Below the pieces are notes generated by a model. It did not search any database and was not told the origin of the DNA. It saw nothing but the letters and a program-made list of their open reading frames with translations. A DNA stretch of 40,600 nt from JBMFOH01 sp049969715 [NCBI: bacterium] (lineage in GTDB: Bacteria > DUMJ01), in assembly GCA_049969715.1 (NCBI GenBank), contig JBMFOH010000016.1, forward strand, positions 1-40,600. The letters are read 5' to 3'. Position numbers and translations under genes: made by a program. Positions 3,290 to 37,783 of the stretch are shown one piece after another; position 1 is the first letter of the stretch, and each line of letters begins with the position of its first letter.

Positions 3290-3319
3290 AAGTGGGAGAA
3301 AGTGGAGGAAAGTGGAAGA
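3290..3319 (+). promoter_or_regulatory. MraZ operator: three 10-base direct repeats
   Basis: Three tandem units AAGTGGGAGA, AAGTGGAGGA and AAGTGGAAGA lie exactly 10 bases apart. They share AAGTGGRNGA and end on the first base of the mraZ start codon. This is the known pattern of MraZ boxes, where GTGG-type repeats with one-turn spacing sit in the mraZ leader. The second unit also supplies the GGAGG ribosome site at 3304-3308, so binding could affect transcription and possibly translation of the first gene. Autoregulation by MraZ is inferred from the family. Confidence 0.85.
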
Positions 3320-3753
3320 TGATATTCTTAGGAGAAGCGCGTCATACCTTAGATGATAAGGGAAGGATAGTAATCCCTACTAGATTTAGACCTCCGTTGA
3401 GGGATGGTTTCTGTATTACTCGAGGATTCGATAATGCCCTCTTCCTCTTTCCTATAGAAGAGTGGAATGATATAGATGAAAAACTAAAATCACTTCCATT
3501 TACTAATGTCAATGTCCTTAAATTTATGAGGTTCTGGTATTCAGGGGCAGTTCAAGACGAACTTGATCCTCAAGGTAGGATTCTTATCCCCAAAAACCTG
3601 AGAGAGTATGCCAAGATAGAGAGAGAGGTAGTGATCGTAGGGGTTTCTAGAAGAATAGAGATATGGAGTGCAGAATTATGGGATAAGTACTTTGGCAATC
3701 CTGAGGAGTTCTATAAGACTATGGAAGAGGCTATAAATGCTATTGGGATCTGA
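3319..3753 (+). CDS. mraZ: Transcriptional regulator MraZ
   Basis: This 144-residue protein has the two tandem AbrB-like half domains of MraZ, each with a DxxGRI/L-P motif: DDKGRIVIPTRF near residues 13-24 and DPQGRILIPKNL near 86-97. MraZ forms a ring-shaped oligomer that binds repeats upstream of its own operon and controls the division and wall gene cluster. ATG 3319 fits the family N-terminus (MIFLGEARHTLDDKGR) and is served by GGAGG at 3304-3308. An in-frame GTG at 3292 is rejected because it lies inside the operator. It is the first gene of the dcw cluster, and its end overlaps rsmH by 17 bases. Confidence 0.95.
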   Translation: MIFLGEARHTLDDKGRIVIPTRFRPPLRDGFCITRGFDNALFLFPIEEWNDIDEKLKSLPFTNVNVLKFMRFWYSGAVQDELDPQGRILIPKNLREYAKIEREVVIVGVSRRIEIWSAELWDKYFGNPEEFYKTMEEAINAIGI

Positions 3754-4621
3754 GGTACTTCATCAGCCTGTAATGTTAAGAGAGGTCTTAGAGATACTAC
3801 AACCAAAACCTGGTGGAAGATATATAGATTGCACATTAGGTGATGGGGGACATTCAAAGGCGATACTAGAGGCGAGCTCTCCTGATGGATTCCTCCTTGC
3901 TATAGATAGAGACCATATTAGTATAGAGAGGGCAAGGGAGAATCTATCTCAGTATAGAGATAGGATAATGATTATTCAGGGTAATTTTTCAAATCTATTA
4001 TCTCTAGTAGCTCCTACAGGTATAGATAGGTTTAATGGGATACTCTTTGACCTGGGAGTATCATCTGTTCAACTTGCTGATTCAGAGAGAGGTTTTAGCT
4101 TTAATATAGATGCACCTCTGGACATGAGGATGGATGAAGGTATATCTATTACCGCTTGTGAGATAGTAAATTCTTATCCTCTAGAGAAGCTAATAGATAT
4201 ATTTTGGAATTTTGGAGAAGAAAGATTCTCTCGACCTATAGCCAAAGCTATTGTTGAATATAGAAAGAAGAAAGAGATCCTCTCCTCTAAGGAACTAGCC
4301 GACATTGTATCTAAGGTAATAAAAAGAAAGGGTAGGATACATCCAGCCACTAAGATATTTATGGCTTTGCGGATATATATAAATGGAGAGTTGGAAAATC
4401 TCAAAGAAGCTATTCCACAGGCCATATCCCTTTTGGCTCCTGGGGGCAGGTTATGCGTGATCTCTTATCATTCGTTAGAAGATAGAATAGTAAAGAATAT
4501 ATTTAGAGAAAGTGGAGAGAAAATCCTCACCCAGTCACCTATAAAGCCTCATCATGAAGAGTTACTGTCAAATAGAAGGGCGCGAAGCGCCAAGTTGAGG
4601 GGGTTAGAAAAGTATGGCTAG
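3737..4621 (+). CDS. rsmH: 16S rRNA m4C1402 methyltransferase RsmH
   Basis: This 294-residue protein (formerly MraW) methylates N4 of C1402 in 16S rRNA using S-adenosylmethionine. The SAM-binding loop DCTLGDGGHS is at 31-40, and the family blocks LDMRMD and ISYHSLEDRIVK are present. The ATG at 3737 has GAAGAGG seven bases upstream and lies inside the end of mraZ. Its place between mraZ and ftsL is the standard dcw order. The C-terminal basic stretch (NRRARSAKLRGLEK) is normal for the family. Confidence 0.96.
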   Translation: MLLGSEVLHQPVMLREVLEILQPKPGGRYIDCTLGDGGHSKAILEASSPDGFLLAIDRDHISIERARENLSQYRDRIMIIQGNFSNLLSLVAPTGIDRFNGILFDLGVSSVQLADSERGFSFNIDAPLDMRMDEGISITACEIVNSYPLEKLIDIFWNFGEERFSRPIAKAIVEYRKKKEILSSKELADIVSKVIKRKGRIHPATKIFMALRIYINGELENLKEAIPQAISLLAPGGRLCVISYHSLEDRIVKNIFRESGEKILTQSPIKPHHEELLSNRRARSAKLRGLEKYG

Positions 4622-4970
4622 AGAACTGGCAAGAAAGGGTCTGCCATATTTAGAAAGTGAGAGGGAACCTAAGGTACAATCTATAAAGGTTCCTTTAGGT
4701 AAGGTCCTTTGGATAAAGTTTATCCTTATATTAGTTTTAATATCATCGATGGTGGGGGTAGGTGTACTCCAGATAAGGCTTCATGGTAATGCTATAAAAT
4801 ATCAAGAAGAGGTGTCCTCTCTTACAGAGAGGATAGAGCAGACTACATTAGAAAATGAGGGATTAAAAAAAGAAGTAGAGAGGTTATCTTCCCCTAGTCG
4901 GCTCTACCAGGAGGGAGAAAGACTTGGTATGAGGCCGGCAGATGAGATCTTAGAAGTTAAAGAGTTTTAG
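4614..4970 (+). CDS. ftsL: FtsL-like division protein
   Basis: This 118-residue bitopic membrane protein has a basic cytoplasmic tail of about 30 residues, one membrane segment (about 32-53), and an extracytoplasmic coiled coil (about 63-95, heptads through SSLTERIEQTTLENEGLKKEV). It ends with GERLGMRPAD, typical of FtsL/DivIC-type proteins. FtsL joins FtsQ and FtsB/DivIC to regulate FtsW/FtsI. Sequence identity in this family is low, so the call rests on topology, size and its position between rsmH and ftsI. It overlaps rsmH by eight bases. Confidence 0.85.
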   Translation: MARELARKGLPYLESEREPKVQSIKVPLGKVLWIKFILILVLISSMVGVGVLQIRLHGNAIKYQEEVSSLTERIEQTTLENEGLKKEVERLSSPSRLYQEGERLGMRPADEILEVKEF

Positions 4971-4973
4971 ACA

Positions 4974-6467
4974 TTGAGTGCTAGAAGAATAGAACTAATA
5001 GCAGTAATATTTATGGCTATGTTTCTGTTAGAAGGGGGAGGACTATTTTATTGGCAGGTAATTAGGTCTAGCGATCTTAACAAGAGGTATATCCTAAATG
5101 AAGAGAATGCTCCTGTAAGAGGTAAGATATATGACAGATTTGGAAGGACCCTTGTTATAAATGAGCTGAAATACTCTGTATTTGCAGATCCCTCCTTGAT
5201 AAAGGACCCTATTGATGTTGGTAGAAAACTCAATAAGATATTAGGTAATAGAGAAGACTATAAAATTAGATTAAGTAGGGATAAGAGATTTGTATGGATA
5301 GCTAGAAAACTGGATAAGAAAGATGCAGAAGATATATTGGCAATTGACAGGAATGCTTTTTTTATTAGACAGGAATATAAAAGGATATATATAGATCAAG
5401 AGATACCAGATATCCTTGGAGGGGTAGATATAGACAACAATGGATTGAGTGGGGTGGAGCTTACTATGAATGATGTCTTGAAAGAGGGAAAGGATGTATA
5501 TCTTAGTATAGATTCTGCCCTTCAGTCTAAGATAGAAGAATTACTCCTTAGGAGTAAGTCCTCTATTGGATTTAAGAGAGGTATCGTTATAGTTTTGTCT
5601 CCTCATACAGGAGAAATCTTGGCTTTAGTTAACCTTCCCCATATCAAGGACTTTGCAGTTCAAGATATCTTTGAGCCTGGCTCGTCACTAAAGCCTATTG
5701 TAGCCTCTATAGCTTTAGAAGAAGATAAGGTTAAGATGGAAGATAGATTCAATTGTAGACCTCCATTTAAGATAAGTGGTGTTACTATAAAGGATGCTCC
5801 ACACTCTGTGAGCTCCTATGAACTGAACCTAAAAGAGATCATTGAGGTGTCATCAAATATTGGGATGGCTCAGGTGGGATTAAAGATTGGAACTAACCTC
5901 TTTTATAAGTATCTTTATGCCTTTGGCTTTGGACATATCACTGGGGTAGAGCTTCCTAATGAGACTCCAGGACTATTTCCTAGGGATATAAATCTTATTT
6001 CTCTCACCCAAAATAGTTTTGGCCAAGGAATAGGGGTAAGTGCTATACAGTTAGTCTCCAGTTATATCCCTTTGGCTAATGGGGGATATCTAGTAGGTCC
6101 TACTATTATAAAAAGAGAGAGGATAGATTCTATAAAACAGGTGATTTCTGCCGTTACTGCTAAAAAGATTACTGAATTACTTATCTCTGTGGTAAAGGAA
6201 GGAACAGGTAAGAAGGCTTCTATAGAAGGTATGGAGATAGCAGGAAAAACAGGAACAGCCCAGAAGGTTATAAATGGATGTTACTCCAATGAGAAGGGGA
6301 TTATGTCTTTTATAGGGTATTTACCTGCCTTATCTCCAAAATATATAATAGGAGTAATATTAGACGAGCCAAACTCTAGTAGATGGGCGTCTGATACTGC
6401 GGCTCCTTTATTTAAGGAGATAGCAAAGATGTTATTATATGGTGAATATATAAGAGGAGAAGGATGA
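4974..6467 (+). CDS. ftsI: Class B penicillin-binding protein, division transpeptidase (FtsI/PBP2B type)
   Basis: This 497-residue septal DD-transpeptidase has one N-terminal membrane anchor (about 8-30), the class B dimerisation block around RGKIYDRFGRTL (49-60), and the three catalytic motifs: SSLK at 237-240, SSN at 293-295 and KTGT at 425-428. No C-terminal PASTA repeats are present, unlike SpoVD or PBP2x. The call as division PBP rather than elongation PBP rests on its place between ftsL and murE; the elongation enzyme is at 29662. The start is TTG 4974, three bases after ftsL, with only a weak ribosome site, so coupling is likely. Its stop overlaps the murE start (ATGA). Confidence 0.93.
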   Translation: MSARRIELIAVIFMAMFLLEGGGLFYWQVIRSSDLNKRYILNEENAPVRGKIYDRFGRTLVINELKYSVFADPSLIKDPIDVGRKLNKILGNREDYKIRLSRDKRFVWIARKLDKKDAEDILAIDRNAFFIRQEYKRIYIDQEIPDILGGVDIDNNGLSGVELTMNDVLKEGKDVYLSIDSALQSKIEELLLRSKSSIGFKRGIVIVLSPHTGEILALVNLPHIKDFAVQDIFEPGSSLKPIVASIALEEDKVKMEDRFNCRPPFKISGVTIKDAPHSVSSYELNLKEIIEVSSNIGMAQVGLKIGTNLFYKYLYAFGFGHITGVELPNETPGLFPRDINLISLTQNSFGQGIGVSAIQLVSSYIPLANGGYLVGPTIIKRERIDSIKQVISAVTAKKITELLISVVKEGTGKKASIEGMEIAGKTGTAQKVINGCYSNEKGIMSFIGYLPALSPKYIIGVILDEPNSSRWASDTAAPLFKEIAKMLLYGEYIRGEG

Positions 6468-7939
6468 ATATATCAAAGTTATTAGAAGGAGTAGAGATAT
6501 CAGATCTTCTAAATTTTAATAGAGGGATAGAGATAACAGGGATTAATAGTAACTCTAAATATATTAAACCTGGTGAGGTATTTGTAGCATTAAGAGGGGA
6601 AAGATTTGATGGACATAATTTTATAGAAGAGGCTATAGACAATGGGGCAGTCCTTGTGATAGGGGATAAAAGGATGGTATCTTTAAGGGTTCCCTATGTT
6701 GAAGTCCCTAACAGTAAGGTAGCTTATGGGATTGTATGTAGAAACTTCTATAATAATCCTTTTAGGGATATTAGGACAATAGGGATAACGGGGACCAATG
6801 GCAAAGGTACAGTAGCCCATATTATAGGTAATATCCTAAAGGGTTTAGGTGAGGATATAGGATTAATAGGGACTATAGAGGTAAGGCTAAAAGATGAGGT
6901 TTTACCTAGCTATTTTACTACTCCAGAACAATTGATACTTACAGGATTATTTAGTAGGGCTAGAGAAAGGGGCATAAGAAAGATCGTAATGGAGGTTTCG
7001 TCCCATTCATTAGTCCAGCATAGGGTAGATGCGGTATGTTTTGATGGGGCAATCTTTACCAATCTTACTCAGGACCATCTAGATTTTCACAATGATATGG
7101 AGTCTTACTTTAGAGCAAAGAGAATGCTTTTTGAAAAGGTAGCTAGGTATGGGAGGGATAGGTTAATGGTTATAAATATCGATGATGAGTATGGAAAGAG
7201 ATTAGTTGAAGATTTCTCTAGGGTTAACCCTATTACCTATGGGATTAGAGAAAAAGCCTCTTTAATTAGGGCTGAAGATATGAGATTTGGTCCTGAGAAG
7301 ACATATTTTAATCTTGTAATAGAAGGAAAATGTTTTCCTGTGGAAATGAAGCTTTTAGGAGAGATAAATGTATATAATGCGTTGGGGGCGTTAGGCTATA
7401 TATACGGAGAAGGTCTTTCAATAGAAAGATCTATAGAGATACTCTCTTCTATACCTCCTGTAAAGGGAAGGATGGAACGTATAGATATTGGACAGCCATT
7501 TACAGTAATATTAGACTATGCCCATACTCCAGATGCATTAGAAAGGATATTAGTGACTGCAAAGATGATGGGGAAAAGGTTGATTGTTGTTTTTGGTTGT
7601 GGAGGAGATAGAGATAAAGGTAAAAGGCCAATTATGGGAAAGATAGCTACCATGTTGGCTGACTTGGCTATTATCACTTCAGATAATCCTCGTAGTGAGG
7701 ACCCTAAAGATATCATTAGAGATATATTAAATGGTGTGAAGGGTAATAACTATAAGGTATTTGAAGACAGAAAGGAAGCTATATTTTTTGCCATAGATTC
7801 TGCTGATGAAAAGGATATAGTAGTGATTGCTGGAAAGGGACATGAGACCTATCAGATATTTAAAGATGGGACTATTTACTTTGACGACAGGGAAGTTGCC
7901 TTAGAGGCAATAAAAGAGAGAATATCAAATGCCTGCTAG
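6464..7939 (+). CDS. murE: UDP-MurNAc-L-Ala-D-Glu:meso-DAP ligase MurE
   Basis: This 491-residue Mur ligase adds the third residue of the stem peptide. The ATP loop is GTNGKGT at 110-116, where most MurE proteins have GTNGKTT; the Gly after Lys resembles folylpolyglutamate synthase. The lysine that is carbamylated in the family is K219 (FRAKRM). DNPR at 407-410 is the signature of meso-diaminopimelate-adding enzymes. ATG 6464 follows a good GGAGAAGG. The usual next gene, murF, is missing, and mraY follows directly with an 11-base overlap. Confidence 0.95.
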   Translation: MNISKLLEGVEISDLLNFNRGIEITGINSNSKYIKPGEVFVALRGERFDGHNFIEEAIDNGAVLVIGDKRMVSLRVPYVEVPNSKVAYGIVCRNFYNNPFRDIRTIGITGTNGKGTVAHIIGNILKGLGEDIGLIGTIEVRLKDEVLPSYFTTPEQLILTGLFSRARERGIRKIVMEVSSHSLVQHRVDAVCFDGAIFTNLTQDHLDFHNDMESYFRAKRMLFEKVARYGRDRLMVINIDDEYGKRLVEDFSRVNPITYGIREKASLIRAEDMRFGPEKTYFNLVIEGKCFPVEMKLLGEINVYNALGALGYIYGEGLSIERSIEILSSIPPVKGRMERIDIGQPFTVILDYAHTPDALERILVTAKMMGKRLIVVFGCGGDRDKGKRPIMGKIATMLADLAIITSDNPRSEDPKDIIRDILNGVKGNNYKVFEDRKEAIFFAIDSADEKDIVVIAGKGHETYQIFKDGTIYFDDREVALEAIKERISNAC

Positions 7940-8873
7940 AGGTTTATTGATATTTTACCTTTCTATACTAGTTAGTGTTTTAGGTTTTAGAGTTTATTTT
8001 AGATATTTAAGGCAGTTTCTGCCTAAGCATGTAAGAGATTACGGTCCTAAGACTCATTTAGTTAAGGAAGGGGTCCCCACTATGGGAGGTATAGTGATTG
8101 TTTTAAGTTCTCTAGTAGCTACATTAGTTCTTTCATTCAATAGGACTACTATAATGTTATTAATATTGTCAGTAAGTTTTGCCCTTATAGGAGGAGTGGA
8201 TGATTACTTGGGGATAAAAAGAAGGCTCGCCCAACCATCTAAGGGAAGATATAAATTTTCATTGGAATGCCTTATTGCATTAGGATGGCTCTTTCTGATA
8301 AAGAGATATGGAGATATTAACTTGAGGCCGGATTTTCTCATTATTCATCCTCTATCTCCATTCTGGGTGTATCTATTAGAGGTCCTATTCTTGGTAGGAA
8401 TGGCAAACGGAGTAAATTTTACAGATGGAGTAGATGGTTTGGCTAGTTCGATTACTGGCTTAGTATTATTATTTCTTTTATTTACGGTAAGAGGAAGTAA
8501 TTTGGTAGAGATGATCCTAGCTATTCTTGGAGGAGTACTTGTATTCCTCTTCTATAATGCGTATCCGGCAAGGGTTATTATGGGTGATATTGGGTCTCTA
8601 TTCTTAGGTGCCAGTATGGGAGGAATAGGGGTGTTAAGTGGGAAGGAATGGCTTATTATTGCCTTTGGTATGGTTTTTGTAGTTGAGACGCTATCTGTTA
8701 TGCTTCAGGTATCAGTATTTAAACTCACAGGTAAGAGGATAATAAAAATGAGCCCTCTCCACCACCATTTTGAACTCTCAGGGTGGAGTGAGCCTCAGGT
8801 AGTTACAAGATTTTCTATCTTTTCTCTGATTATAAGTTTATTGGGGGTATTTATAAGTGGAATTACAAGATAG
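7929..8873 (+). CDS. mraY: Phospho-MurNAc-pentapeptide transferase MraY
   Basis: This 314-residue polytopic membrane enzyme makes lipid I by moving phospho-MurNAc-pentapeptide to undecaprenyl phosphate. Visible motifs are the DD pair at 91-92, NFTDGVDG at 163-170 with its catalytic Asp, and the LHHHFE loop around 277-282. About ten hydrophobic segments fit the family. Start ATG 7929 overlaps murE by 11 bases; its end overlaps murD by 17 bases. Confidence 0.96.
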   Translation: MPARGLLIFYLSILVSVLGFRVYFRYLRQFLPKHVRDYGPKTHLVKEGVPTMGGIVIVLSSLVATLVLSFNRTTIMLLILSVSFALIGGVDDYLGIKRRLAQPSKGRYKFSLECLIALGWLFLIKRYGDINLRPDFLIIHPLSPFWVYLLEVLFLVGMANGVNFTDGVDGLASSITGLVLLFLLFTVRGSNLVEMILAILGGVLVFLFYNAYPARVIMGDIGSLFLGASMGGIGVLSGKEWLIIAFGMVFVVETLSVMLQVSVFKLTGKRIIKMSPLHHHFELSGWSEPQVVTRFSIFSLIISLLGVFISGITR

Positions 8874-10194
8874 ATATATAACCGTAGTTGGGTATGGAAA
8901 GACTGGTAAGGCTTGTGTAGAGGTATTATCTAGATTAGGTGCCAAGGTAAGGGTTACAGATAAGAAGAGGGATATCGATGTGCCACCCGGGATAGAGGTA
9001 GAGACTGGATGTCACACCTTAGATTTTATCTCTGGGTCCGATCTGGTGATAGTGAGTCCTGGAGTTAGATGGGATGAACCAGTATTGGAATATGCAAGAA
9101 AGAATGGGATAGAAACGATAAGTGAGGTAGAACTTGCGTTTAGACTTACTGATAAACCCATCATTGCTATCACAGGGACAAATGGAAAGACTACAACTAC
9201 TGCCCTAACTGCTCATATCCTCTCTAAAAATGGTAAAAAGGTATCTCTAGTAGGTAATATAGGAACACCGTTTATTGAGAAGGTCTATGAGAGTCCTGAT
9301 TATTTTGTCTTAGAAGTTAGCAGCTTTCAGCTTCAAGGGACTAAATATTTTAGACCTTGGATTGGGACACTACTTAATATAGCAAGTGACCATCTTAATT
9401 GGCATAATAGCTTTGAGGAATATATAGAGGCGAAGAAGAGATTATTTATAAATCAGTCAAAGGATGATTATCTTATCTTTAATTATGATGACAAGATAGT
9501 GAGAGAGGCTGTAGGCTCTGCAAGGAGTAATAAGATTATGTTTTCTCTATATGATCAATCTGGGGTATATTTGGATGGAGATAAAATAAGATTTGGTATC
9601 CCTAGATATTCAGAATATGAGATAAATCTAAGAGATTCTAAACTTATAGGACACCATAACTTTACCAACATAATGGTAGCAAGTACTATAGGACTTTTAT
9701 GCGGCCTTTTACCAGAAGGGATAGAAGCCTCTTTAGAAGATTTTTATCCATATCCACATACATTAGAGAGGTTTTTAGAAAGCGATGGGATTATATTTAT
9801 AGACGATTCAAAGGCTACTAATCCCCATGCCACTATAAGTGCATTAAAGAGCTTATCTGGAAGAAAGATCCTTGTGTTAGGTGGACAGGATAAGGGTATG
9901 GACTTTGAACCACTGGTAGATGAGATAGAAAAGAATGATGTAAAGCGTATCATCCTTATAGGAGAGACGAAAGAGAAGATAAAATTGATATTAGAGAGGA
10001 GAGGCCTTTCTAACTTTTCTCTCTGTAGTACGTTAGAAGAGGCACTTGAGACAGGAATGAGATATGCTAGCAATGGGGATATATTTCTCTTTAGCCCTGC
10101 CTGTGCTAGTTTTGATATGTTTAGTAACTATAAAGAGAGAGGAGAGAGATTTAAAGAGATTGTCTACAAGTGGAAATGTGGTAAGGATAAATAG
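8857..10194 (+). CDS. murD: UDP-MurNAc-L-Ala:D-Glu ligase MurD
   Basis: This 445-residue Mur ligase adds D-glutamate to UDP-MurNAc-L-alanine. It has the N-terminal Rossmann-like UDP domain (TVVGYGKTGKA, 9-19), the ATP loop GTNGKTT at 107-113 and a C-terminal domain with DDSKATNPHAT, the MurD signature. The start is GTG 8857, inside the end of mraY. It follows mraY and precedes ftsW, the standard order. Confidence 0.96.
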   Translation: MELQDRYITVVGYGKTGKACVEVLSRLGAKVRVTDKKRDIDVPPGIEVETGCHTLDFISGSDLVIVSPGVRWDEPVLEYARKNGIETISEVELAFRLTDKPIIAITGTNGKTTTTALTAHILSKNGKKVSLVGNIGTPFIEKVYESPDYFVLEVSSFQLQGTKYFRPWIGTLLNIASDHLNWHNSFEEYIEAKKRLFINQSKDDYLIFNYDDKIVREAVGSARSNKIMFSLYDQSGVYLDGDKIRFGIPRYSEYEINLRDSKLIGHHNFTNIMVASTIGLLCGLLPEGIEASLEDFYPYPHTLERFLESDGIIFIDDSKATNPHATISALKSLSGRKILVLGGQDKGMDFEPLVDEIEKNDVKRIILIGETKEKIKLILERRGLSNFSLCSTLEEALETGMRYASNGDIFLFSPACASFDMFSNYKERGERFKEIVYKWKCGKDK

Positions 10195-15692: not shown

Positions 15693-15696
15693 AGAG

Positions 15697-17282: not shown

Positions 17283-17298
17283 AGGAGGAGATATTAAA

Positions 17299-18330: not shown

Positions 18331-18354
18331 ATGGGAGGTGATAAATAGACGTAC

Positions 18355-19851: not shown

Positions 19852-19853
19852 AA

Positions 19854-21026: not shown

Positions 21027-21035
21027 GAGGAGAAT

Positions 21036-21446: not shown

Positions 21447-21452
21447 TATAAT
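21444..21452 (+). promoter_or_regulatory. Extended -10 promoter before hisS
   Basis: TGATATAAT at 21444-21452 uses the sepF stop as its extended TG. TTGATA at 21427-21432 lies only 14 bases upstream, too close for a normal -35. The predicted start at about 21458 leaves a leader of about 40 bases, too short for a T-box. It sits in the largest gap of the 34-kb plus-strand block. Confidence 0.6.
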
Positions 21453-21496
21453 TGTTGTGAATTTAATATTGAAAGTTCGAAAGAGAGGTCTTCCTT

Positions 21497-22738: not shown

Positions 22739-22741
22739 ATA

Positions 22742-29165: not shown

Positions 29166-29166
29166 A

Positions 29167-29661
29167 ATGGATACTAGAAATGCTATATCTTTGACTCTAG
29201 CTAATGTAGGAGAGGTTCTTTTAGGTTGTGTGCTTAATATCTTTTATCCAAATTCTATAGCGATCAATGGTCTCTTGCCGAATTTTTTGTTGATATTTTC
29301 TATGGGTATCATCCTAAAGGAGGATTTTTTTAGTTTTCTCCCAATACTTATCTTTGGGGGTATTGTTGATAGTTTATGGAGGGGAATAAATCCAGGGATA
29401 AATGTATTGAGCCTTACCCTATCCTGTGGAATAGTGTTCTTTTTCTTCTCTCGTTTATGGAAGAGTAGGTGGCTTATTTTAATTACTATTTTTCCCACTA
29501 CTCTGTTATATTTTGTGATAAGTTGCATTATAATCTCTGTCACTCAGACTGGTACACTTAACTTTTATGATGCCCTTTCATTTGGAATATGGCAAGGTAT
29601 ATATAATATACTGTGGGCATTGATCCTTTTGATAATCTTTCCTAAGATATTTGTAAAATAA
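29167..29661 (+). CDS. mreD: Rod shape-determining membrane protein MreD
   Basis: This 164-residue protein has about five or six hydrophobic segments, the size and topology of MreD, with the family-like NGLLPNFLLIF block near residues 35-45 and GIVDSLWRGINPGIN near 65-79. MreD is weakly conserved, so position between mreC and the elongation PBP supports the call. ATG 29167 is one base after the mreC stop. Confidence 0.88.
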   Translation: MDTRNAISLTLANVGEVLLGCVLNIFYPNSIAINGLLPNFLLIFSMGIILKEDFFSFLPILIFGGIVDSLWRGINPGINVLSLTLSCGIVFFFFSRLWKSRWLILITIFPTTLLYFVISCIIISVTQTGTLNFYDALSFGIWQGIYNILWALILLIIFPKIFVK

Positions 29662-31419
29662 ATGAGAAGAAGGATTGTTTTGATATATATTTTTGTATTG
29701 TTGTTAGAGAGTACGCTTATCTGGAAACTTTATCAGATACAAATCTTAGAAGGAACTTATTATAGAGAGCTAGCAGAAGGAAACAGGATAAGATTGCTCT
29801 CTATATCTCCCCCTAGGGGAGAAATATGGGATCGGAAAGGAAAGGTTATGGCTACAAATAGACCTACCTTTGTAGTCTCTGTGATTCCATTTGAGGGAAA
29901 TAAAAAGGACTCATTGATGCTTTTAAGCAAGATTACTCAGGTTCCATACGCTGATATAAAGAAGAAACTTGATAACGCAACGAATAGTCTCCAGCCTGTA
30001 AATATTGTGTTAGATGCTAATATGGAGGTAGTAGGGAAGATAAAAGAATTAGAAGATAAATTGCCAGGAGTCTTGGTTAATACAGATGTTATAAGATACT
30101 ACCCATATAACTCTCTGGCATCTCACATATTGGGATATATAGGGGAGGTTTCAAAGGAAGAGCTTAACACCTTAGGAAAGAATGGGGTAAAGATGGGGGA
30201 TATCGTAGGAAAGTCGGGAATAGAGAAAGAATACCAGAAAGAATTGATGGGTATCCCAGGAGGACAACAGGTAGAGGTAGATGCAATGGGAAGACCTATA
30301 AAGGTCTTAGGTATGTTATCTCCTACCCCTGGGGCAACGATAGTTACTACTATAGACTTATCTCTACAAGAGCTGGCAGAGAGGTCTCTAGAGAAAGGAG
30401 GGCTTCCTGGGGCTATAGTGGTGATGAATCCAAATAATGGAGAAATTTTGGCTATGGCGAGTTATCCAGAATTTGATCCTAATAAATTTGCAAGAGGGAT
30501 TACTATTGAAGAGTGGAACGAACTCTTATCTCCTAGACGTCCTCTAGTGAATAGGGCAATAAGTTCTGCCTATCCGCCTGGTTCAACATTTAAGATAGTA
30601 ACGGCATTAGCTGCCCTAAGAGAGAATGTAGCAAGTAAGGACAGTGTATTCTATTGCCCAGGATATATTATGATAGGTAACCGTAAATTTAAAGACTGGA
30701 CCGCACATGGACGGATAGATTTTTTAGATGCTATAGCCGAATCCTGTGATGTAACCTTTTATACATTGGGATTAAAGTTAGGGGCAGAAACCTTGGCTAA
30801 ATATGCTAGGATGTTAGGTTTAGGGAGACCTACTGAGGTAGACCTTCCAGGAGAGATTGCGGGTCTTATTCCTGATCCTTCTTGGAAAAAAGACCATTGG
30901 TATCTAGGAGATACTGCCAATATGGCTATAGGACAAGGATATGTCCAGGTGACCCCTATCCAGATGGCAGTAATGGTAAGTGCTATAGCAAATGGAGGAA
31001 AGGTGTATAGACCCAGGATTGTGTCTGAGATAATAAAACAGGATGGTAGTAAGGTGGTTCAGCCAGTAACTGTAGCAAATGACCTTTCTAGATTTAAGAA
31101 AGAAATCTCTATAATAAAAGAAGGGATGGAGATGGTAGTAGAGAAAGGGACAGGGACCCCAGCAAGATTATCTGGTATAAAAGTGGCTGGCAAAACCGGT
31201 ACGGCAGAGAATCTTCCAACTAGAGATAATCCTAAGGGAAAGGCTCATGCCTGGTTCATAGCCTATGCTCCAGCAGATGACCCTAAGATCGCTGTATCGG
31301 TTATAGTAGAGCAGGGAGAACATGGAAGTTCTACGGCAGCACCTATAGCTGCAGAACTTATAGATTACTATCTCACTGGAAATAAGATCCAACGGGGTGG
31401 AGAATGGAGGGGAGATTAA
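29662..31419 (+). CDS. mrdA: Class B penicillin-binding protein PBP2, elongation transpeptidase
   Basis: This 585-residue transpeptidase pairs with RodA. It has an N-terminal anchor (about 5-23), the pedestal block PPRGEIWDRKGKVMATNRP, and catalytic motifs YPPGSTFK (SxxK), SCD (SxN-type with Asp, common in PBP2) and KTGT in VAGKTGTAEN. The block TVDLPGE-like sequence and QGYVQVTPIQMA are also PBP2-typical. ATG 29662 directly follows mreD. The location between mreD and minC matches Firmicutes order. Confidence 0.95.
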   Translation: MRRRIVLIYIFVLLLESTLIWKLYQIQILEGTYYRELAEGNRIRLLSISPPRGEIWDRKGKVMATNRPTFVVSVIPFEGNKKDSLMLLSKITQVPYADIKKKLDNATNSLQPVNIVLDANMEVVGKIKELEDKLPGVLVNTDVIRYYPYNSLASHILGYIGEVSKEELNTLGKNGVKMGDIVGKSGIEKEYQKELMGIPGGQQVEVDAMGRPIKVLGMLSPTPGATIVTTIDLSLQELAERSLEKGGLPGAIVVMNPNNGEILAMASYPEFDPNKFARGITIEEWNELLSPRRPLVNRAISSAYPPGSTFKIVTALAALRENVASKDSVFYCPGYIMIGNRKFKDWTAHGRIDFLDAIAESCDVTFYTLGLKLGAETLAKYARMLGLGRPTEVDLPGEIAGLIPDPSWKKDHWYLGDTANMAIGQGYVQVTPIQMAVMVSAIANGGKVYRPRIVSEIIKQDGSKVVQPVTVANDLSRFKKEISIIKEGMEMVVEKGTGTPARLSGIKVAGKTGTAENLPTRDNPKGKAHAWFIAYAPADDPKIAVSVIVEQGEHGSSTAAPIAAELIDYYLTGNKIQRGGEWRGD

Positions 31420-31420
31420 A

Positions 31421-32017
31421 ATGAGTATTACAATAAAAGGGGAAAGAAATTATTTGGTGATAAAGATAGATAAACCAATAGATAGTGAAGATCTAGATAA
31501 CTTTAGAAATCAGATGGTAAAGAATAGAGACTTCCTTTCTAAAGGAAAGGTCCTGATAAAATATGCAGGAGAATCTATATCTCTAGAAGAGGTTCAGGAG
31601 TTAGTCTCTGCAATTGGAGAATTAGAGGAGATAAAGATCTTAGGACTTCTTACTGAAACTACTATACCTAAGGATGAGGGAGGTGCTATAGTTATAAGAA
31701 AGACATTACGTTCTGGTCAGAGTATAAGTTATAATGGAGATGTTGTAATCTTCGGGGATGTAAATGCTGGAGCAGAGGTTATAGCAGAAGGAGATATTAT
31801 AGTGATAGGAGCACTAAGAGGCGTAGTTCATGCTGGCGCTATGGGAAATAGGGATGCAATAATATACGCTCTTGAATTCTCCCCTACTCAAGTTAGGATA
31901 GCAGATGTAATAGCTAGGGCTCCGGAGAAGATAAAAGGTGAGGTTGCGCCTGAAATAGCTAGAATAAAGGAGAATAGTATTATTATTGAAACTATAACTC
32001 ATGGAGGGATAAGATAA
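31421..32017 (+). CDS. minC: Septum site-determining protein MinC
   Basis: This 198-residue inhibitor of FtsZ assembly has a short N-terminal domain and then the right-handed beta-helix domain with SGQSISYNGDVVIFGDVNAGAEV and GALRGVVHAGAMGN, which binds MinD. I take ATG 31421, because GGGGAG lies six bases upstream and the protein then begins at strand 1. An in-frame ATG at 31397 would add eight residues inside the PBP2 gene. The stop shares one base with the minD ATG. Confidence 0.93.
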   Translation: MSITIKGERNYLVIKIDKPIDSEDLDNFRNQMVKNRDFLSKGKVLIKYAGESISLEEVQELVSAIGELEEIKILGLLTETTIPKDEGGAIVIRKTLRSGQSISYNGDVVIFGDVNAGAEVIAEGDIIVIGALRGVVHAGAMGNRDAIIYALEFSPTQVRIADVIARAPEKIKGEVAPEIARIKENSIIIETITHGGIR

Positions 32018-32820
32018 TGGTAGGAAAGGTGATAGTAGTAACCTCAGGTAAAGGTGGGGTAGGAAAGACTACAGCTGTAGCTAATATAGGAACTGCCTTA
32101 GCATCTATGGAGAAAAAGATAGCACTAGTAGATGCAGATATAGGTTTAAGAAATTTAGATGTGGTCCTAGGATTAGAGAATAGAATAGTATATGATATAG
32201 TAGATGTAGTTGAGGGGAGGGCAAAGTTACGGCAGGCCCTTATAAAGGATAAAAGATTCCCAACATTGTCGCTTCTACCAGCAGCTCAAACAAGGGAAAA
32301 GGATGCTGTCTCTCCTGAAGATATGCTAAGACTATGCGAAGAACTTAAAACTCAGTTTGATTTCATTATTATAGATTCTCCTGCTGGGATAGAGCAAGGA
32401 TTTAAGAATGCTGTAGTTCCTGCAGATATAGCCCTCATAGTAACTACCCCTGAGGTTTCTGCGGTAAGGGATGCTGATAGGGTTATCGGGTTATTGGAAT
32501 CTATGGAAAAATCAGATGGTAGGCTCATAATAAATAGAGTAAGGACAAAGCTGGTAGACAGGGGAGATATGTTAAGTATAGAGGATGTATTAGAGATCCT
32601 TTCTATAGAGTTGATAGGTGTAATTCCCGAGGATGAGAATATTATAATATCTACCAACAAGGGAGAACCAGTAGTAAATAATGGTAATGCTCCTGCAGGA
32701 AAGAGTTTCTTAGATATAGCAAGAAGGATCTTGGGTGAAGATGTCCCTATCAACCTTCATAGGGAGAAGGAAGGTATCTTTAATAGATTACTAAGATTTA
32801 TAGGGAGGAGAGAGGAGTAA
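32017..32820 (+). CDS. minD: Septum site-determining ATPase MinD
   Basis: This 267-residue deviant Walker A ATPase has GKGGVGKTTAVANIG at 11-25 and DADIGLRNLDVVLGLENR near 39-56. The C-terminal GIFNRLLRFIGRREE is an amphipathic membrane-targeting helix as in E. coli and B. subtilis MinD. ATP-bound MinD recruits MinC to the membrane, and MinE stimulates its ATPase. It has a one-base overlap with minE. Confidence 0.97.
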   Translation: MVGKVIVVTSGKGGVGKTTAVANIGTALASMEKKIALVDADIGLRNLDVVLGLENRIVYDIVDVVEGRAKLRQALIKDKRFPTLSLLPAAQTREKDAVSPEDMLRLCEELKTQFDFIIIDSPAGIEQGFKNAVVPADIALIVTTPEVSAVRDADRVIGLLESMEKSDGRLIINRVRTKLVDRGDMLSIEDVLEILSIELIGVIPEDENIIISTNKGEPVVNNGNAPAGKSFLDIARRILGEDVPINLHREKEGIFNRLLRFIGRREE

Positions 32821-33116
32821 TGAGTGTTATAATAGAGAATATAAGGAAATTTTTTAGTCGCGAGCCATCGAGTAAAGAGGTGGCTAAGGAGAGACTTAAG
32901 CTTGTGCTTATTCACGATAGAACAAGCATCTCTCCTGAGATTATGAATGAGATAAAGAGTGAGATAATAGATGTTATTTCAAAGCATCTAGAAATAGATA
33001 TGGAAGGGATAGATATCTCGTTAGAAGGGGAGGAAAACTCTATCGCTCTTATCGCGAGTATCCCTATAAAGGGGCTGAAAAGATATAATAATAAGAAGAA
33101 GAAAGTTCGCAGTTGA
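32820..33116 (+). CDS. minE: Cell division topological specificity factor MinE
   Basis: This 98-residue protein has the MinE layout: an N-terminal amphipathic stretch, the MinD-contact region (AKERLKLVLIHDRTSISPE, near 22-40), and the dimerising beta domain (DVISKHLEIDMEGIDISLEG and IALIASIPI). With MinC and MinD it can form an oscillator. No divIVA is in the window, so this organism appears to use the MinE-type system. The end is rich in lysine and overlaps the upstream extension of the rodA frame. Confidence 0.93.
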   Translation: MSVIIENIRKFFSREPSSKEVAKERLKLVLIHDRTSISPEIMNEIKSEIIDVISKHLEIDMEGIDISLEGEENSIALIASIPIKGLKRYNNKKKKVRS

Positions 33117-33132
33117 TTATCTGTCAATCATA

Positions 33133-34176
33133 TTGATAGGAAGTGCATTTGCTCTCTCTATTGTGGGAGTTGTTTCAATATACAGTGCTACATACTGGAA
33201 AGGTCCAGAGTTGTGGGATAAGCAGTTTGTTTCTCTTCTTTTAAGTATTCCCCTTATTATTGTGCTGAGGTTTATAGACTATAGATTTTGGATGAGGATA
33301 GCCCCCTATCTATATATGTTATCTCTACTTCTTCTAGTAGGAGTATTTATACTCTCTCCTTCGATAAAAGGAGCTAAGAGATGGATATATTTTGGGGATT
33401 TTAGCTTCCAACCTTCAGAGATTGGTAAGCTTACTTTAATATTTATGTTGGCTAGAATTGTAGAATATAAAAGGTCCTCTTGGAAGGAATTTTCTATATT
33501 CACCGTAGGTTTACTCCTTACTGTTATTCCCGCTGGACTTATAGCAATACAACCTGATCTTGGGACTGCAGTAGTTTTTATATTTATATTTGTAGCTGTA
33601 ATATTTATCTCTTGTATATCTCTAAAGTATCTGATAGGACTTTTAGGCTTAGGGATAGTAAGTATCCCTTTGGTATGGAATTTTCTCCTTAGAGATTATC
33701 AGAAGGAACGTATACTTACCTTTATGGATCCCACTAAAGACCCTCTTGGAGCAGGGTACCATATAATACAGTCTAAATTAGCTATTGGATCAGGAGAACT
33801 ATTTGGTTATGGATTTCTCAATGGTCCCCAGAATAGACTCAAGTTTATCCCTGAACAGCATACAGACTTCATCTTTTCTCTAATAGGGGAAGAATTCGGA
33901 TTTATAGGAGCACTAGTAGTTATATCTTTATTCATAGTACTTTTTTTAGTTGGACTTTCAATAGCCTCTAAGAGTGAGACTCTAGGAGGCGTTATAATGG
34001 GAGTAGGAATTATTTCTATGCTCTGTATCCATATGTTTGTAAATATAGGTATGACTATAGGTCTTTTGCCAGTAACAGGCATCCCTCTTCCATTTATAAG
34101 TTATGGAAGAAGCGGCTTAATTACTAATATGATTGCCATTGGTATCCTCTCTTCTCTTAGAAGAGGTGAAACTTAG
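33133..34176 (+). CDS. rodA: Elongation SEDS glycosyltransferase RodA (start codon uncertain)
   Basis: This protein of at least 347 residues is of the SEDS family; it polymerises glycan for the side wall with PBP2. Family blocks are GVVSIYSATY in TM1, IQPDLGTA, NRLKFIPEQHTDFIFSLIGEE, and GIPLPFISYGRSGL. The Gly usually following Gly in the YGGS motif is Arg here. TTG 33133 is the first normal start, but the frame is open upstream to 33079. The upstream residues (RRRKFAVDYLSIIL) look like the true RodA N-terminus, with a conserved Asp and the first half of TM1. No ATG, GTG or TTG serves that extension; CTG 33121 or an ATA at 33085-33093 may. Confidence 0.93.
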   Translation: MIGSAFALSIVGVVSIYSATYWKGPELWDKQFVSLLLSIPLIIVLRFIDYRFWMRIAPYLYMLSLLLLVGVFILSPSIKGAKRWIYFGDFSFQPSEIGKLTLIFMLARIVEYKRSSWKEFSIFTVGLLLTVIPAGLIAIQPDLGTAVVFIFIFVAVIFISCISLKYLIGLLGLGIVSIPLVWNFLLRDYQKERILTFMDPTKDPLGAGYHIIQSKLAIGSGELFGYGFLNGPQNRLKFIPEQHTDFIFSLIGEEFGFIGALVVISLFIVLFLVGLSIASKSETLGGVIMGVGIISMLCIHMFVNIGMTIGLLPVTGIPLPFISYGRSGLITNMIAIGILSSLRRGET

Positions 34177-35891
34177 TGTCTTATCCTTTTGATCTTCTAT
34201 ATAGGATAAGAAGGCCCGCCTTCTATATAGGGGGTGAATATAATATGGTGAAAAAGGTAAGAAAAGGGAAGGTTAAAGTGGCATTGGCATTTCCAGACAC
34301 TTATGATATAGGGATGTCAAACTTAGGATTTTCTATTATATATAACGTAATTAATCTTAGAGAGGATGCCTTGGCAGAGAGGGTATTTGCTCCTTGGATA
34401 GATATGGAGAAATATTTAAGAGAGAAAGACTTGCCATTATTAACTCTAGAGACCGGGACACCTGTCTCTGAATTTGATATATTGGGTTTTTCTCTTTCCT
34501 ATGAACTAAACTATTCTAATGTGGTCAATATATTGGACCTTAGCAGGATCTCAATACTTTCTTCCAATAGAGATGGACTTCCATTGGTGATTGCAGGAGG
34601 TGGCTGCACCACTCATCCTGCTCCTCTTCTTGACATTATAGATTGTTTTGCTGTTGGGGATGGAGAAGAGTTGATAAATGAGGTTATAGATATATTTAAA
34701 GAATGGAAAGAGAGTAGTAATAGGAAGGAAGAACTATTAGAGGCTCTCTCTTCTATAGATGGATTATATGTTCCTCTCTTTCATAAAGATGTGAAGCGTA
34801 GGATAGTAAGGGACCTAAGTAAGGTTCCATATCCAACTAGACCTCTTGTACCAAATACTGAGGTTATCCACGATAGGGCTGTAGTAGAGATTATGCGTGG
34901 CTGTACTAGGGGATGCAGATTCTGTGAGGCAGGTTTCATATATAGGCCTGTAAGGGAGAGAGATTTAAAGGATGTAATCTCTCTGTCAGAGGAGATACTC
35001 TCTTCTACAGGTTATAGTGAGATAGGATTTCTTTCTTTAAGCGCTAGCGATTACAGCCAGATAGAAGGTTTAGCTCGATATATAAGGGAGAGACTTATCC
35101 CTCTTCATATATCTGTTTCAGTTCCATCTTTAAGGGTTGACACATCCTCACAAGAGCTCTTTCATGCTATAGGGGAGATAAAAAGAGGCATTACATTTGC
35201 TCCAGAGGCAGGTTCCCAAAGGTTGAGGGACATAATAAATAAGAATATAACAGAAGATAACATTTTAAATAGTATAAAGGTTACCTCTAAAGAAGGATGG
35301 AGGTCGGTAAAGTTATACTTTATGATAGGACTTCCCACTGAGAAAGAAGAGGATATATTAGAGATAGTAAGGCTTATCAATGAGATAAGAAGGATAAATA
35401 GAAATGTAGAGATAAATGCAAGTATTTCTACCTTTGTCCCCAAGCCCCATACACCTTTCCAATGGGTTAGACAGATATCTCCAGATGAAGTGATGGAAAA
35501 GATAACCCTAATAACTAAAAACTTAAGTAGAAAGGGAATAAATATAAGTTGGACCGATCCATTTGTAAGTGTCTTAGAGGGTATACTTACCAGAGGAGGG
35601 ACAGAGTTGACAGAGGTAATATTAGATGTATGGAGGAATGGTGCTAGGTTTGATGCCTGGACAGATCAATTTAGATGGGGTTTGTGGGAGGAAGCTTTTG
35701 ATAGACATAATATAGATTGGACTAATTATCTAAGAGAAAAAAGGTATGAGGATCCTCTTCCTTGGAATTTTATAGATATAGGTGTGAGAAAAGAATTCCT
35801 TTGGGAGGAATATCAATTAGCACTTTCTGGGGTTAGAAGGGAAGATTGTAGAATAAGGGGGTGTTATAATTGCGGTGTTTGCCCGTATTGA
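34176..35891 (+). CDS. TIGR03960-family B12-binding-like radical SAM protein
   Basis: This 571-residue protein has the family N-terminus (RIRRPAFYIGGEYN, 11-24), a B12-binding-like domain (FPDTYDIGMSNLG; IAGGGCTTHPAPLLD; GDGEE), the radical SAM cluster site C243-x3-C247-x2-C250 (CTRGCRFC), and a C-terminal cysteine cluster CRIRGCYNCGVC. It is nearly always paired with the DUF2344 protein that follows. The role of the pair is not established; tRNA modification has been suggested only from context. GTG 34176 overlaps the rodA stop by one base. Confidence 0.93.
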   Translation: MSYPFDLLYRIRRPAFYIGGEYNMVKKVRKGKVKVALAFPDTYDIGMSNLGFSIIYNVINLREDALAERVFAPWIDMEKYLREKDLPLLTLETGTPVSEFDILGFSLSYELNYSNVVNILDLSRISILSSNRDGLPLVIAGGGCTTHPAPLLDIIDCFAVGDGEELINEVIDIFKEWKESSNRKEELLEALSSIDGLYVPLFHKDVKRRIVRDLSKVPYPTRPLVPNTEVIHDRAVVEIMRGCTRGCRFCEAGFIYRPVRERDLKDVISLSEEILSSTGYSEIGFLSLSASDYSQIEGLARYIRERLIPLHISVSVPSLRVDTSSQELFHAIGEIKRGITFAPEAGSQRLRDIINKNITEDNILNSIKVTSKEGWRSVKLYFMIGLPTEKEEDILEIVRLINEIRRINRNVEINASISTFVPKPHTPFQWVRQISPDEVMEKITLITKNLSRKGINISWTDPFVSVLEGILTRGGTELTEVILDVWRNGARFDAWTDQFRWGLWEEAFDRHNIDWTNYLREKRYEDPLPWNFIDIGVRKEFLWEEYQLALSGVRREDCRIRGCYNCGVCPY

Positions 35892-36453
35892 ATATAAAAA
35901 GTATGGACCTTTGATTTTTATATCACATCTAGATCTGATCCGGACCTGGGAGAGGATAGCTAGAAGGGCAAGGCTTCCGGTAGCTTTTACTGAAGGTTTT
36001 CATCCTAAACCTAAATTTTCTTTTATCCCACCTCTTCCTGTTGGATTTGAAGGAGAAAGAGAACTATTAGATATAAAGATTATAGAGACTTCCCCGGATA
36101 TCAAAGATATGGTTAATAGTGTAACGCCAGAGGGTATATGGGTTAATAGTGTAGAAATAATAGCTAACTCAGATCTTAGTAAAATAATCATAGGTGCTAG
36201 CTATGATTTTAAGTGGATAGGAGAATTAGCCGAGAAGACCTTAAAAGAGAAGTTAACGACGATAGGATTAATGGAATGGAGCTATTCCTTTAAGAATTTA
36301 GATAAAAATACAGGAGAGAACCTTCTTTCTCTTGATATCTTATTCTCTTCTAAGGAGATTACACCAAAAAAAGTAGTAGACCTGATAGAAGGGTTAGGTT
36401 ATATTAGGTGGGTAAGATTATCACGGAGAGCTCTGTTAAAAAGGTTACCTTAG
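35875..36453 (+). CDS. DUF2344 / TIGR03936 family protein
   Basis: This 192-residue protein has the family opening YKKYGPLIFISHLDLIRTWER and the ARLPVAFTEGFHPKPKFSF block (residues near 8-46). It is the standing partner of TIGR03960 radical SAM proteins and is in some lineages fused to it. It may form a complex with it or bind its substrate; no reaction is known. Start GTG 35875 overlaps the previous gene by 17 bases. rng and rplU, which often follow in Firmicutes, are absent. Confidence 0.9.
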   Translation: MFARIEYKKYGPLIFISHLDLIRTWERIARRARLPVAFTEGFHPKPKFSFIPPLPVGFEGERELLDIKIIETSPDIKDMVNSVTPEGIWVNSVEIIANSDLSKIIIGASYDFKWIGELAEKTLKEKLTTIGLMEWSYSFKNLDKNTGENLLSLDILFSSKEITPKKVVDLIEGLGYIRWVRLSRRALLKRLP

Positions 36454-37367
36454 GTAATACTGGACTTTGTGTCTCGGATATCGGTATTGGAACCTTACCC
36501 TTTGCTGCATATAGAAATAATAAAAAGGATTTTATTTCTCTTGTTACCTACGCTTATAATATTGGGATAAATCTCTTTGATACTGCTGAGATATATGAGA
36601 ACTATGAGCTTTTGGGAAAGGCATTGAAAAATTGCCATGAGGTTATTATTATTACTAAATCTTATGCAGTAACTAGGGACGATGTGGAAGCCAGCCTCTC
36701 AAAGGCTAGAAGGGAACTGAAAAGAGACATTGATATATTTTTACTTCATGAACAGGAGTCTATCTTTACTCTTAGAGGTCATATGGGAGCTATAGAACAT
36801 CTATATAGGTTGAAAGAGAGAGGTGATATAAGAGGGGTAGGAATTTCTACCCATAAGGTTTCAGGAGTGGAAGGAGCAATAGATTTTAGATTGGATGTAG
36901 TAATGGGGATAATAAATCTTGTTGGACTAGGCATCTCTGATGGGACAAGGGAGGATATGGAAAGAGTATTGGCAATGGCATATAATACGGGAATAGGAGT
37001 AATAGGGATGAAGGTCCTTGGTGGAGGCCATTTATTACCTAGAATAAATGATGCGTTTAATTATATTAGAGGTTTAGATTTTATTCACTCCTATCTTATT
37101 GGGGTAGAGACTATAGATGATTTAGAGACAGATTTAAAGTTATTTAGAGGAGCTTCGGTAGATAGAGAGAAATTACTTTCTAGAAGTTTAAAGGAGAAAC
37201 ATATAGAAATAGAACCTTGGTGTACTGGGTGCGGACTCTGTGTGAATAGGTGTAAACAGGAGGCTATAAAGATAAGAGATGGAAAGGCTTTTGTAATAGA
37301 AGAAAGATGTGTGTTATGCAGTTATTGTGCACAGATTTGCCCTGATTTTTCTATAAGGCTTGTATGA
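36408..37367 (+). CDS. Aldo/keto reductase with C-terminal 2x[4Fe-4S] ferredoxin domain
   Basis: This 319-residue protein joins an aldo/keto reductase TIM barrel with catalytic tetrad D58, Y63, K84, H114 (DTAEIYEN, TKS, LLHEQ) to a ferredoxin module with C272/275/278/282 and C301/304/307/311. Such fusions are common in anaerobes, and the electron donor may be ferredoxin or NAD(P)H; the substrate is unknown. Start GTG 36408 overlaps the DUF2344 gene by 46 bases, and the only alternatives are further inside. Its end overlaps ruvX by four bases. Confidence 0.9.
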   Translation: MGKIITESSVKKVTLGNTGLCVSDIGIGTLPFAAYRNNKKDFISLVTYAYNIGINLFDTAEIYENYELLGKALKNCHEVIIITKSYAVTRDDVEASLSKARRELKRDIDIFLLHEQESIFTLRGHMGAIEHLYRLKERGDIRGVGISTHKVSGVEGAIDFRLDVVMGIINLVGLGISDGTREDMERVLAMAYNTGIGVIGMKVLGGGHLLPRINDAFNYIRGLDFIHSYLIGVETIDDLETDLKLFRGASVDREKLLSRSLKEKHIEIEPWCTGCGLCVNRCKQEAIKIRDGKAFVIEERCVLCSYCAQICPDFSIRLV

Positions 37368-37783
37368 GATACTTAGGAATAGACTTTGGATTAAAGAGGA
37401 TAGGATTTTCTATAAGTGATGAGAATAGGAGGATTGCATTTGGACTTACCACTATAGAAGGCTATAAGATGAAGGACCTAATTTCCTATATAAAGGAATT
37501 AGTAGTTAGGTATAGGGTAGAAAAGATTGTGGTAGGGTTTCCTAAAAATATGAATGGAACACCAGGAGTTCTTTCTAAGGACATATATAATTTTATAGAA
37601 AAGATTAAAGGTGCAATAGGGGATGTAGAGATAATTCTATGGGATGAAAGGCTAACTACACTTCAGGGAGAAAGGATACAAAAAGAGATGAAGAAAAAGA
37701 GGAAAAGGATAATAGTGGATGAGATCGCTGCCACTTTGATCTTACAGAGTTATCTTGACTATAGAAATAGATTTGACGGTTGA
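37364..37783 (+). CDS. ruvX: YqgF/RuvX family RNase H-like nuclease
   Basis: This 139-residue protein begins MRYLGIDFGLKRIGFSISD, the YqgF pattern with the first catalytic Asp. It continues with VVGFPKNMNG and DERLTTLQGE, which has the second acidic site, and ends with DEIAATLILQSYL, holding the last Asp. The family is proposed to resolve Holliday junctions or process 16S rRNA. It closes the tight plus-strand block; the following DNA is decayed. Confidence 0.94.
   Translation: MRYLGIDFGLKRIGFSISDENRRIAFGLTTIEGYKMKDLISYIKELVVRYRVEKIVVGFPKNMNGTPGVLSKDIYNFIEKIKGAIGDVEIILWDERLTTLQGERIQKEMKKKRKRIIVDEIAATLILQSYLDYRNRFDG

What the first reader, a model, noticed from the sequence alone, without database searches (positions are those of the whole stretch)
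3319..37783. Division, elongation, Min and wall-precursor genes merged in one 34-kb block
The dcw cluster (mraZ to ftsZ, then sepF) and the shape cluster (maf-mreBCD-pbp2-minCDE-rodA) lie on one strand with almost no gaps, linked by hisS-aspS and rnfB-apbE-Gx. In well-studied Firmicutes these two clusters are separate. Both SEDS/PBP pairs (FtsW/FtsI and RodA/PBP2), FtsZ with both its anchors, and the Min system could share transcription. Only one internal promoter (before hisS) is plain to the eye.
Basis: partly seen in the sequence, partly recalled or inferred. Interest (0 to 1): 0.65.

Follow-up and report, generated by a model that had tools for sequence, protein, structure and literature searches.

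The report
Merged bacterial division and shape genes
In a little-known bacterial lineage the genes for splitting the cell, for building its rod shape and for choosing the division site lie head to tail in one 34-kb block; the block is real and shared by its relatives, but similar joins turn up now and then in other bacteria, so it is an unusual layout of known parts rather than a new machine.

Summary
From 3319 (mraZ) to 37783 (ruvX), 37 genes lie on one strand; 26 of 36 junctions overlap or abut, 128 bp are non-coding. Misassembly is ruled out: the order recurs gene for gene on contigs of two relatives and from rSAM1 to ruvX in a third, at about 62% amino-acid identity. These are the only genomes held of their phylum; by one AspS tree it is not Bacillota. 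In the relatives, 2 of 2 SEDS and 2 of 3 transpeptidase genes sit in these clusters. Two possible control points are conserved: GTGG repeats like an MraZ box before mraZ, and an extended -10 overlapping the sepF stop before hisS. Most likely two overlapping transcription units. The join is uncommon, not unique: ftsZ and mreB on one strand within 40 kb in 4 of 112 genomes of other phyla and 6 of 95 located Clostridia, lower bounds because drafts are broken up; a second small phylum (3 of 4) and a Clostridia family (6 of 11) carry it with other linker genes. Co-transcription is untested.

The parts
3292..3315 (+). Three GTGG repeats at 10-bp period just before the mraZ ATG: candidate MraZ operator
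   Evidence: Only match in the window with up to 1 mismatch; 0.09 expected, 8 of 100 shuffles had one or more; repeats also before mraZ in G002 and G014
3319..18330 (+). dcw half: mraZ, rsmH, ftsL-like, ftsI, murE, mraY, murD, ftsW, murG, murC, murB, ftsQ-position ORF, DUF881, DUF1290 (sbp), ftsA, ftsZ
   Evidence: ORFs, Pfam, NCBIfam for some, same order in G002 and G014
18355..21446 (+). TIGR03960-like radical SAM gene, HlyD-like gene, sepF
   Evidence: Pfam, NCBIfam match to TIGR03960 below its cut-off; same order in relatives
21444..21452 (+). Extended -10 motif TGATATAAT overlapping the sepF stop codon; its TATAAT begins 50 bp before the hisS ATG
   Evidence: Present in 4 of 4 genomes although the sepF stop and frame differ; the motif as such is at chance frequency in the window
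21497..27340 (+). Linker: hisS, aspS, rnfB-like, apbE, Gx (PF07456), maf
   Evidence: Pfam; same order in three relatives
27337..34176 (+). Shape and Min half: mreB, mreC, mreD-position ORF, pbp2, minC, minD, minE, rodA
   Evidence: Pfam, NCBIfam RodA above cut-off; same order in three relatives
34176..37783 (+). Tail: second radical SAM gene, DUF2344, aldo/keto reductase with ferredoxin domain, ruvX
   Evidence: Pfam; same order in three relatives
1537..3187 (-). Divergent left neighbours hsp33 and mrp, conserved but not part of the block's transcript
   Evidence: Pfam; same place in G002 and G014

Best explanation
A genuine, lineage-conserved gene cluster in which the dcw (division and wall-precursor) cluster plus sepF was joined, through hisS-aspS-rnfB-apbE-Gx-maf, to the mre-pbp2-min-rodA shape cluster. 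It most likely works as two overlapping transcription units: one starts before mraZ and is controlled by MraZ binding the GTGG repeats; the other starts at the conserved extended -10 that overlaps the end of sepF and drives hisS to ruvX. With only 38-50 bp between sepF and hisS and no terminator-like site in that gap, transcripts from the first unit probably read through into the second, so elongation, Min and tRNA-synthetase genes get a share of division-cluster transcription. Shown: gene content, order, gaps, conservation and motif conservation. Inferred: promoter activity, MraZ binding, read-through and any coordinating effect.
For: Same 37-gene order on single contigs of G002 and G014, and from rSAM1 to ruvX in G001, whose contig begins there; mean amino-acid identity 62% between window and relatives. 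26 of 36 junctions overlap or abut, 128 non-coding bp. No terminator-like site in the sepF-hisS gap. Extended -10 before hisS in 4 of 4 genomes despite different sepF stops and frames. GTGG-N6 repeats in 3 of 3 genomes whose stretch includes mraZ, and found once in the window. Passages of PMC8475190 say that MraZ represses its own cluster in E. coli and M. genitalium and that its site in Mollicutes is a series of direct repeats AAAGTG[T/G].
Against: No RNA data. The hisS motif has no good -35 by eye, TGNTATAAT is at chance frequency in the window (5 found, 3.95 expected), and its conservation rests on two lineages (the window against three relatives that are 85-87% alike). One weak terminator-like site lies inside sepF, 21282-21298. 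Promoter-like and terminator-like counts are at chance level in both halves. The three relatives also have an extended -10 before sepF that the window lacks, so internal promoters are not fixed.
Confidence: 0.6

Rival explanations
1. Neutral neighbours: the two clusters happen to be adjacent on one strand, each served by its own promoter, and the join has no regulatory meaning; it persists because breaking a tight run of essential genes is harmful anywhere.
For: A conserved promoter-like motif sits exactly at the join; no MraZ-box-like site before the shape half (up to 1 mismatch); in other lineages the clusters are joined through quite different genes, in G125, G124 and G279 with genes on the other strand in between, as chance neighbours would be.
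Against: 38-50 bp spacing in 4 of 4 genomes without a terminator-like site in the window's gap.
Confidence: 0.3
2. Relic of an old arrangement: dcw and mre-min clusters were neighbours in a distant ancestor and stayed together here, in the phylum of G125 and in some Clostridia, while most lineages separated them.
For: The same direction (ftsZ then mreB, one strand) occurs in G125 and two more of its phylum, in six genomes of one Clostridia family, and in G231, G279 and G124.
Against: Linker genes differ: LytR-CpsA-Psr, RF-1, YceG, SPOR in G125; NrdR, URO-D, GNAT, LPG synthase TM, DUF1638 in G216; SpoIIGA, two sigma factors, NrdR, NRDD, his genes in G231. Reverse order (G029, G147, G005, G287) and opposite strands within 40 kb (G210, G237, G238) also occur.
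Confidence: 0.12
3. Assembly chimera at the sepF-hisS join.
For: None found.
Against: The same join in three other assemblies, with 38-bp gaps.
Confidence: 0.01

Closest known systems
dcw (division and cell wall) cluster
   Same: mraZ-rsmH-ftsL-ftsI-murE-mraY-murD-ftsW-murG-murC-murB-ftsQ place-ftsA-ftsZ order, DUF881 and DUF1290 before ftsA, sepF downstream; that this is the usual order is recalled
   Different: No murF (on another contig in relatives); very short ORF in the ftsQ place; a radical-SAM gene and an HlyD-like gene between ftsZ and sepF; runs on into the shape cluster
maf-mreBCD-pbp2-minCDE-rodA shape and Min cluster, as in Clostridia genome G231
   Same: Gx, maf, mreB, mreC, mreD place, pbp2, minC, minD, minE, rodA, then radical SAM and DUF2344
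   Different: G231 has a 239-aa ORF between maf and mreB and three ORFs between rodA and radical SAM; in the window the half is preceded directly by dcw-sepF through hisS-aspS-rnfB-apbE, while in G231 20 listed ORFs over 21 kb, one of them (128 aa) on the other strand, lie between ftsZ and mreB
Joined dcw and mre-min block of the phylum of G125
   Same: dcw to ftsZ, then mreB-mreC-pbp2-minCDE-rodA downstream on the same strand in G125; ftsZ and mreB 5.5 kb apart in 3 of 4 genomes of the phylum, the fourth split over contigs
   Different: Different linker, with an RF-1 gene on the opposite strand in G125

Membership tests
dcw cluster | Run of mraZ, rsmH, ftsI, mur genes, mraY, ftsW, murG, ftsA, ftsZ on one strand | tested here: met
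   murF absent
mre-min shape cluster | mreB-mreC-mreD with pbp2, minC-minD-minE and rodA on one strand | tested here: met
   mreD by position only
MraZ-controlled cluster | Direct-repeat MraZ box before mraZ | tested here: met
   Three GTGG-N6 repeats, found once in the window and kept in two relatives; resemblance to the box in PMC8475190 passages
MraZ-controlled cluster | MraZ binds there and changes transcription | not testable with these tools
   Needs binding and expression assays
Single operon from mraZ to ruvX | Continuous transcripts across all junctions | not testable with these tools
   Only gaps, terminator-like and promoter-like sites could be examined
Bacillota (Firmicutes) | Falls inside Bacillota in a protein tree | tested here: not met
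   AspS tree of 33 rows: window with L001 and L002 outside the starred Bacillota group; one gene, deep forks unsupported
Sporulation-type dcw SEDS gene (SpoVE) | Better match to SpoVE than to FtsW | tested here: not met
   TIGR02614 ftsW 283.6 bits against TIGR02615 spoVE 206.4, both below their cut-offs

The most novel reading that the evidence does not exclude
The join is under selection: MraZ-controlled transcription reads through sepF-hisS so that divisome, elongasome, Min system and wall-precursor enzymes share one dosage signal, and similar joins arose independently in at least three bacterial lineages because such coupling is useful.
Probability: 0.2. Interest if true: 0.6.

Novelty: new variant of a known kind. 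Interest (0 to 1): 0.38.

Why it matters
In the three relatives, 2 of 2 SEDS genes and 2 of 3 transpeptidase genes found are coded in these clusters, so one stretch of DNA could set the balance between growing longer and dividing. If read-through were shown, it would be a natural test of whether bacteria tune elongation against division by sharing transcription. If not, it is still a clean gene-order state, met in several lineages, for studying how essential clusters merge and split.

Tried and rejected
Misassembly: rejected, same join in three other assemblies. A second conserved promoter before mreB: TATAAT lies 71 bp before mreB in 4 of 4 genomes, but in the window it encodes the Tyr-Asn of maf's YNVMGLP (sequence; that this is a conserved Maf motif is recalled), so protein constraint explains it. 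Consensus promoter and terminator scans: at chance level in both halves; most terminator-like sites lie within genes. RNA families: only the tRNA-Gln at 208. Plasmid or viral origin: no near match in plasmids for 16056-18330, no FtsZ relative confirmed in viral contigs. Both genes within 40 kb but on opposite strands were not counted as joined: G210, G237, G238; also G022, whose mreB-like match on the other strand 15 kb away missed the cut-off. Same strand but 66-90 kb apart (G186, G191, G247, G213) were not counted either.

Counting limits. Survey A (recounted): 139 genomes, 3 of them of the own phylum; 114 have ftsZ at E 1e-50 and mreB at 1e-95 or better, 112 of these outside the phylum, 16 of the 112 with both on one contig; 4 joined. 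Survey B (recounted): 143 Clostridia genomes, 121 with both genes; mreB rows weaker than 8.5e-114 were not listed, so 26 of 121 could not be located and 95 remain, 23 of them with both on one contig; 6 joined. Genes on different contigs were counted as not joined, so 4 of 112 and 6 of 95 are lower bounds, and 4 of 16 and 6 of 23 upper ones. Fifteen of the loci used for the joined cases were annotated only by similarity to window proteins plus 20 ORFs by Pfam.

Literature: six searches on the join listed no title or abstract that describes dcw and mre-min clusters as one block, and the passages read in three papers do not either; the other papers were not opened for this. The 2022 paper on dcw evolution that I recall is not held. 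Searches served other questions.
Full report
What is there. The window (38% G+C) holds 37 genes on the + strand from mraZ (ATG at 3319) to ruvX (stop ends at 37783). Pfam and NCBIfam name 34 of them; the ftsL-like gene has only NCBIfam matches under cut-off, and the ORFs in the ftsQ and mreD places are named only by place. 26 of 36 junctions overlap or abut, 8 leave 1-20 bp, only ftsZ-rSAM1 (24 bp) and sepF-hisS (50 bp) leave more, and 128 bp in 34.5 kb are non-coding (with mraZ taken from the GTG at 3292). The left neighbours mrp and hsp33 run the other way. To the right, after ruvX, come broken remains of another gene and a GH35-like gene.

Whose it is. No genome is held for the window. The nearest sequences by AspS are two unnamed bacterial MAGs at 77% identity; the other 78 loci returned are at 53% or less. 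The phylum of these relatives has three genomes held, G001, G002 and G014; that the window belongs to it is inferred. In an AspS tree of 33 rows (the window and 32 of the 80 loci, my choice) the window and the two MAGs form a separate branch outside Bacillota. This is one gene, a sample shaped by the search, and deep forks without support, but it speaks against reading the block as a Firmicutes oddity.

Is it an assembly error. No. G002 and G014 carry hsp33, mrp and the 37 genes in the same order and orientation on one contig each; G001's contig C54 starts inside rSAM1 and then shows the same genes through sepF-hisS to ruvX. On another contig of G001, C123, matches at the places expected of ftsI, murE, murD, ftsW and murC follow in dcw order (murE, murD and murC inferred from order and frame length). 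Mean amino-acid identity between window and relatives is 62%, and among the relatives 85-87%, so the order has outlived considerable divergence. The right flank is not shared.

How complete the set is. In each of the three relatives two SEDS genes were found, both in these clusters, and three transpeptidase genes, two of them there; the third (613-aa frame) is elsewhere. There is one sepF match in each and one ftsZ in G002 and in G014 at E 1e-50 or better (none in G001, whose contig C54 begins just downstream of that place). murF lies on another contig in all three. By NCBIfam scores the dcw SEDS gene is closest to FtsW, below cut-off, and the other is RodA above its cut-off.

Control points. 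Directly before the mraZ ATG stand three GTGG repeats at a 10-bp period. The pattern occurs once in the window, with 0.09 expected when one mismatch is allowed (8 of 100 shuffles had it), and the repeats are kept in G002 and G014. Passages of PMC8475190 report that MraZ represses its own cluster and that its site in Mollicutes is a series of direct repeats AAAGTG[T/G], which two of the window's repeats (AAAGTGG) resemble. The other control point is an extended -10, TGNTATAAT, that overlaps the sepF stop; its TATAAT begins 43-50 bp before the hisS ATG. It is present in 4 of 4 genomes although sepF ends on TGA in the window and on TAA, in another frame, in the relatives, so DNA rather than protein is conserved. 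Against it: I see no good -35, and the motif itself is at chance frequency in the window (5 against 3.95 expected). The relatives, not the window, have another extended -10 before sepF, and one 290 bp before minC. No terminator-like site lies in the sepF-hisS gap; a weak one lies inside sepF at 21282-21298.

How it most likely works. Two overlapping transcription units: an MraZ-controlled one from mraZ, and one from the hisS promoter, with read-through at the join. Order, spacing and motif conservation are shown; promoter activity, MraZ binding, read-through and any coordinating effect are inferred.

Is it ordinary. It is uncommon but not unique. Among 139 genomes drawn as relatives of G002, 112 outside its phylum have both genes at the E-values used; ftsZ and mreB lie on one strand within 40 kb in 4: G124 and G125 (ftsZ first), G029 and G147 (mreB first). 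Of the 112, 16 have both on one contig. Among 143 Clostridia, both genes could be located in 95, of which 23 have both on one contig; 6 qualify: G216, G244, G279, G231 (ftsZ first), G005, G287 (mreB first). The shares 4 of 112 and 6 of 95 are lower bounds, since a join can be cut at contig ends. Of the four genomes held of G125's phylum, 3 have the genes 5.5 kb apart and the fourth is split over contigs. Of the 11 genomes of G216's family, 6 have them 6-7 kb apart and 5 have them on different contigs (with G244's ftsZ).

How the other joins compare. Linkers differ between lineages, which favours repeated joining over one old arrangement without proving it. G125 has dcw, mre, Min and rodA genes but an RF-1 gene on the other strand in between; G124 and G279 also have genes on the other strand in between; G216 and G244 run on one strand from ftsZ to pbp2, but no Min gene was matched there; G231 has Min genes and both SEDS-PBP pairs on one strand, but 20 listed ORFs over 21 kb, including sporulation, nrd and his genes and one 128-aa ORF on the other strand, lie between ftsZ and mreB. 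So the compact window layout, with both SEDS-PBP pairs and Min genes in a run with at most 50-bp gaps, was seen only in the window's own group (gaps up to 61 bp in the relatives), within the ten outside cases annotated.

Literature. Passages of PMC10693644 treat rodA-mrdA as lying in a different locus from dcw in a set of 494 Firmicutes genomes; its method asks for absence of mraW and mraY close by, so a joined case would not have been called. Passages of PMC7873302 and PMC3296230 do not describe a join. The other papers were seen only as search listings. I found no description of a merged dcw and mre-min block in the library searched; most subscription papers are not in it.

Noticed in passing
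37784-38303: Remains of a broken dehydrogenase-like gene (one frame reads VLCEKPVA, a motif I recall from Gfo/Idh/MocA oxidoreductases, then stops) between ruvX and a GH35-like gene; the flank genes are not found beside ruvX in the relatives.
   Followed up: partly
18355-19851 and 34176-35891: Two radical SAM paralogues, 33% identical, one behind ftsZ and one behind rodA, i.e. one in each half of the block.
   Followed up: partly
14525-14986: The ORF in the ftsQ place is only 153 aa and matches no Pfam or NCBIfam model; the ORFs there in G002 and G014 are equally short.
   Followed up: no
G002:C14, G001:C89, G014:C155: murF lies away from the dcw cluster in all three relatives.
   Followed up: partly
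L130 (G029:C93): In a genome of another phylum mreB lies on the same strand 11.7 kb upstream of ftsZ, the reverse order.
   Followed up: no
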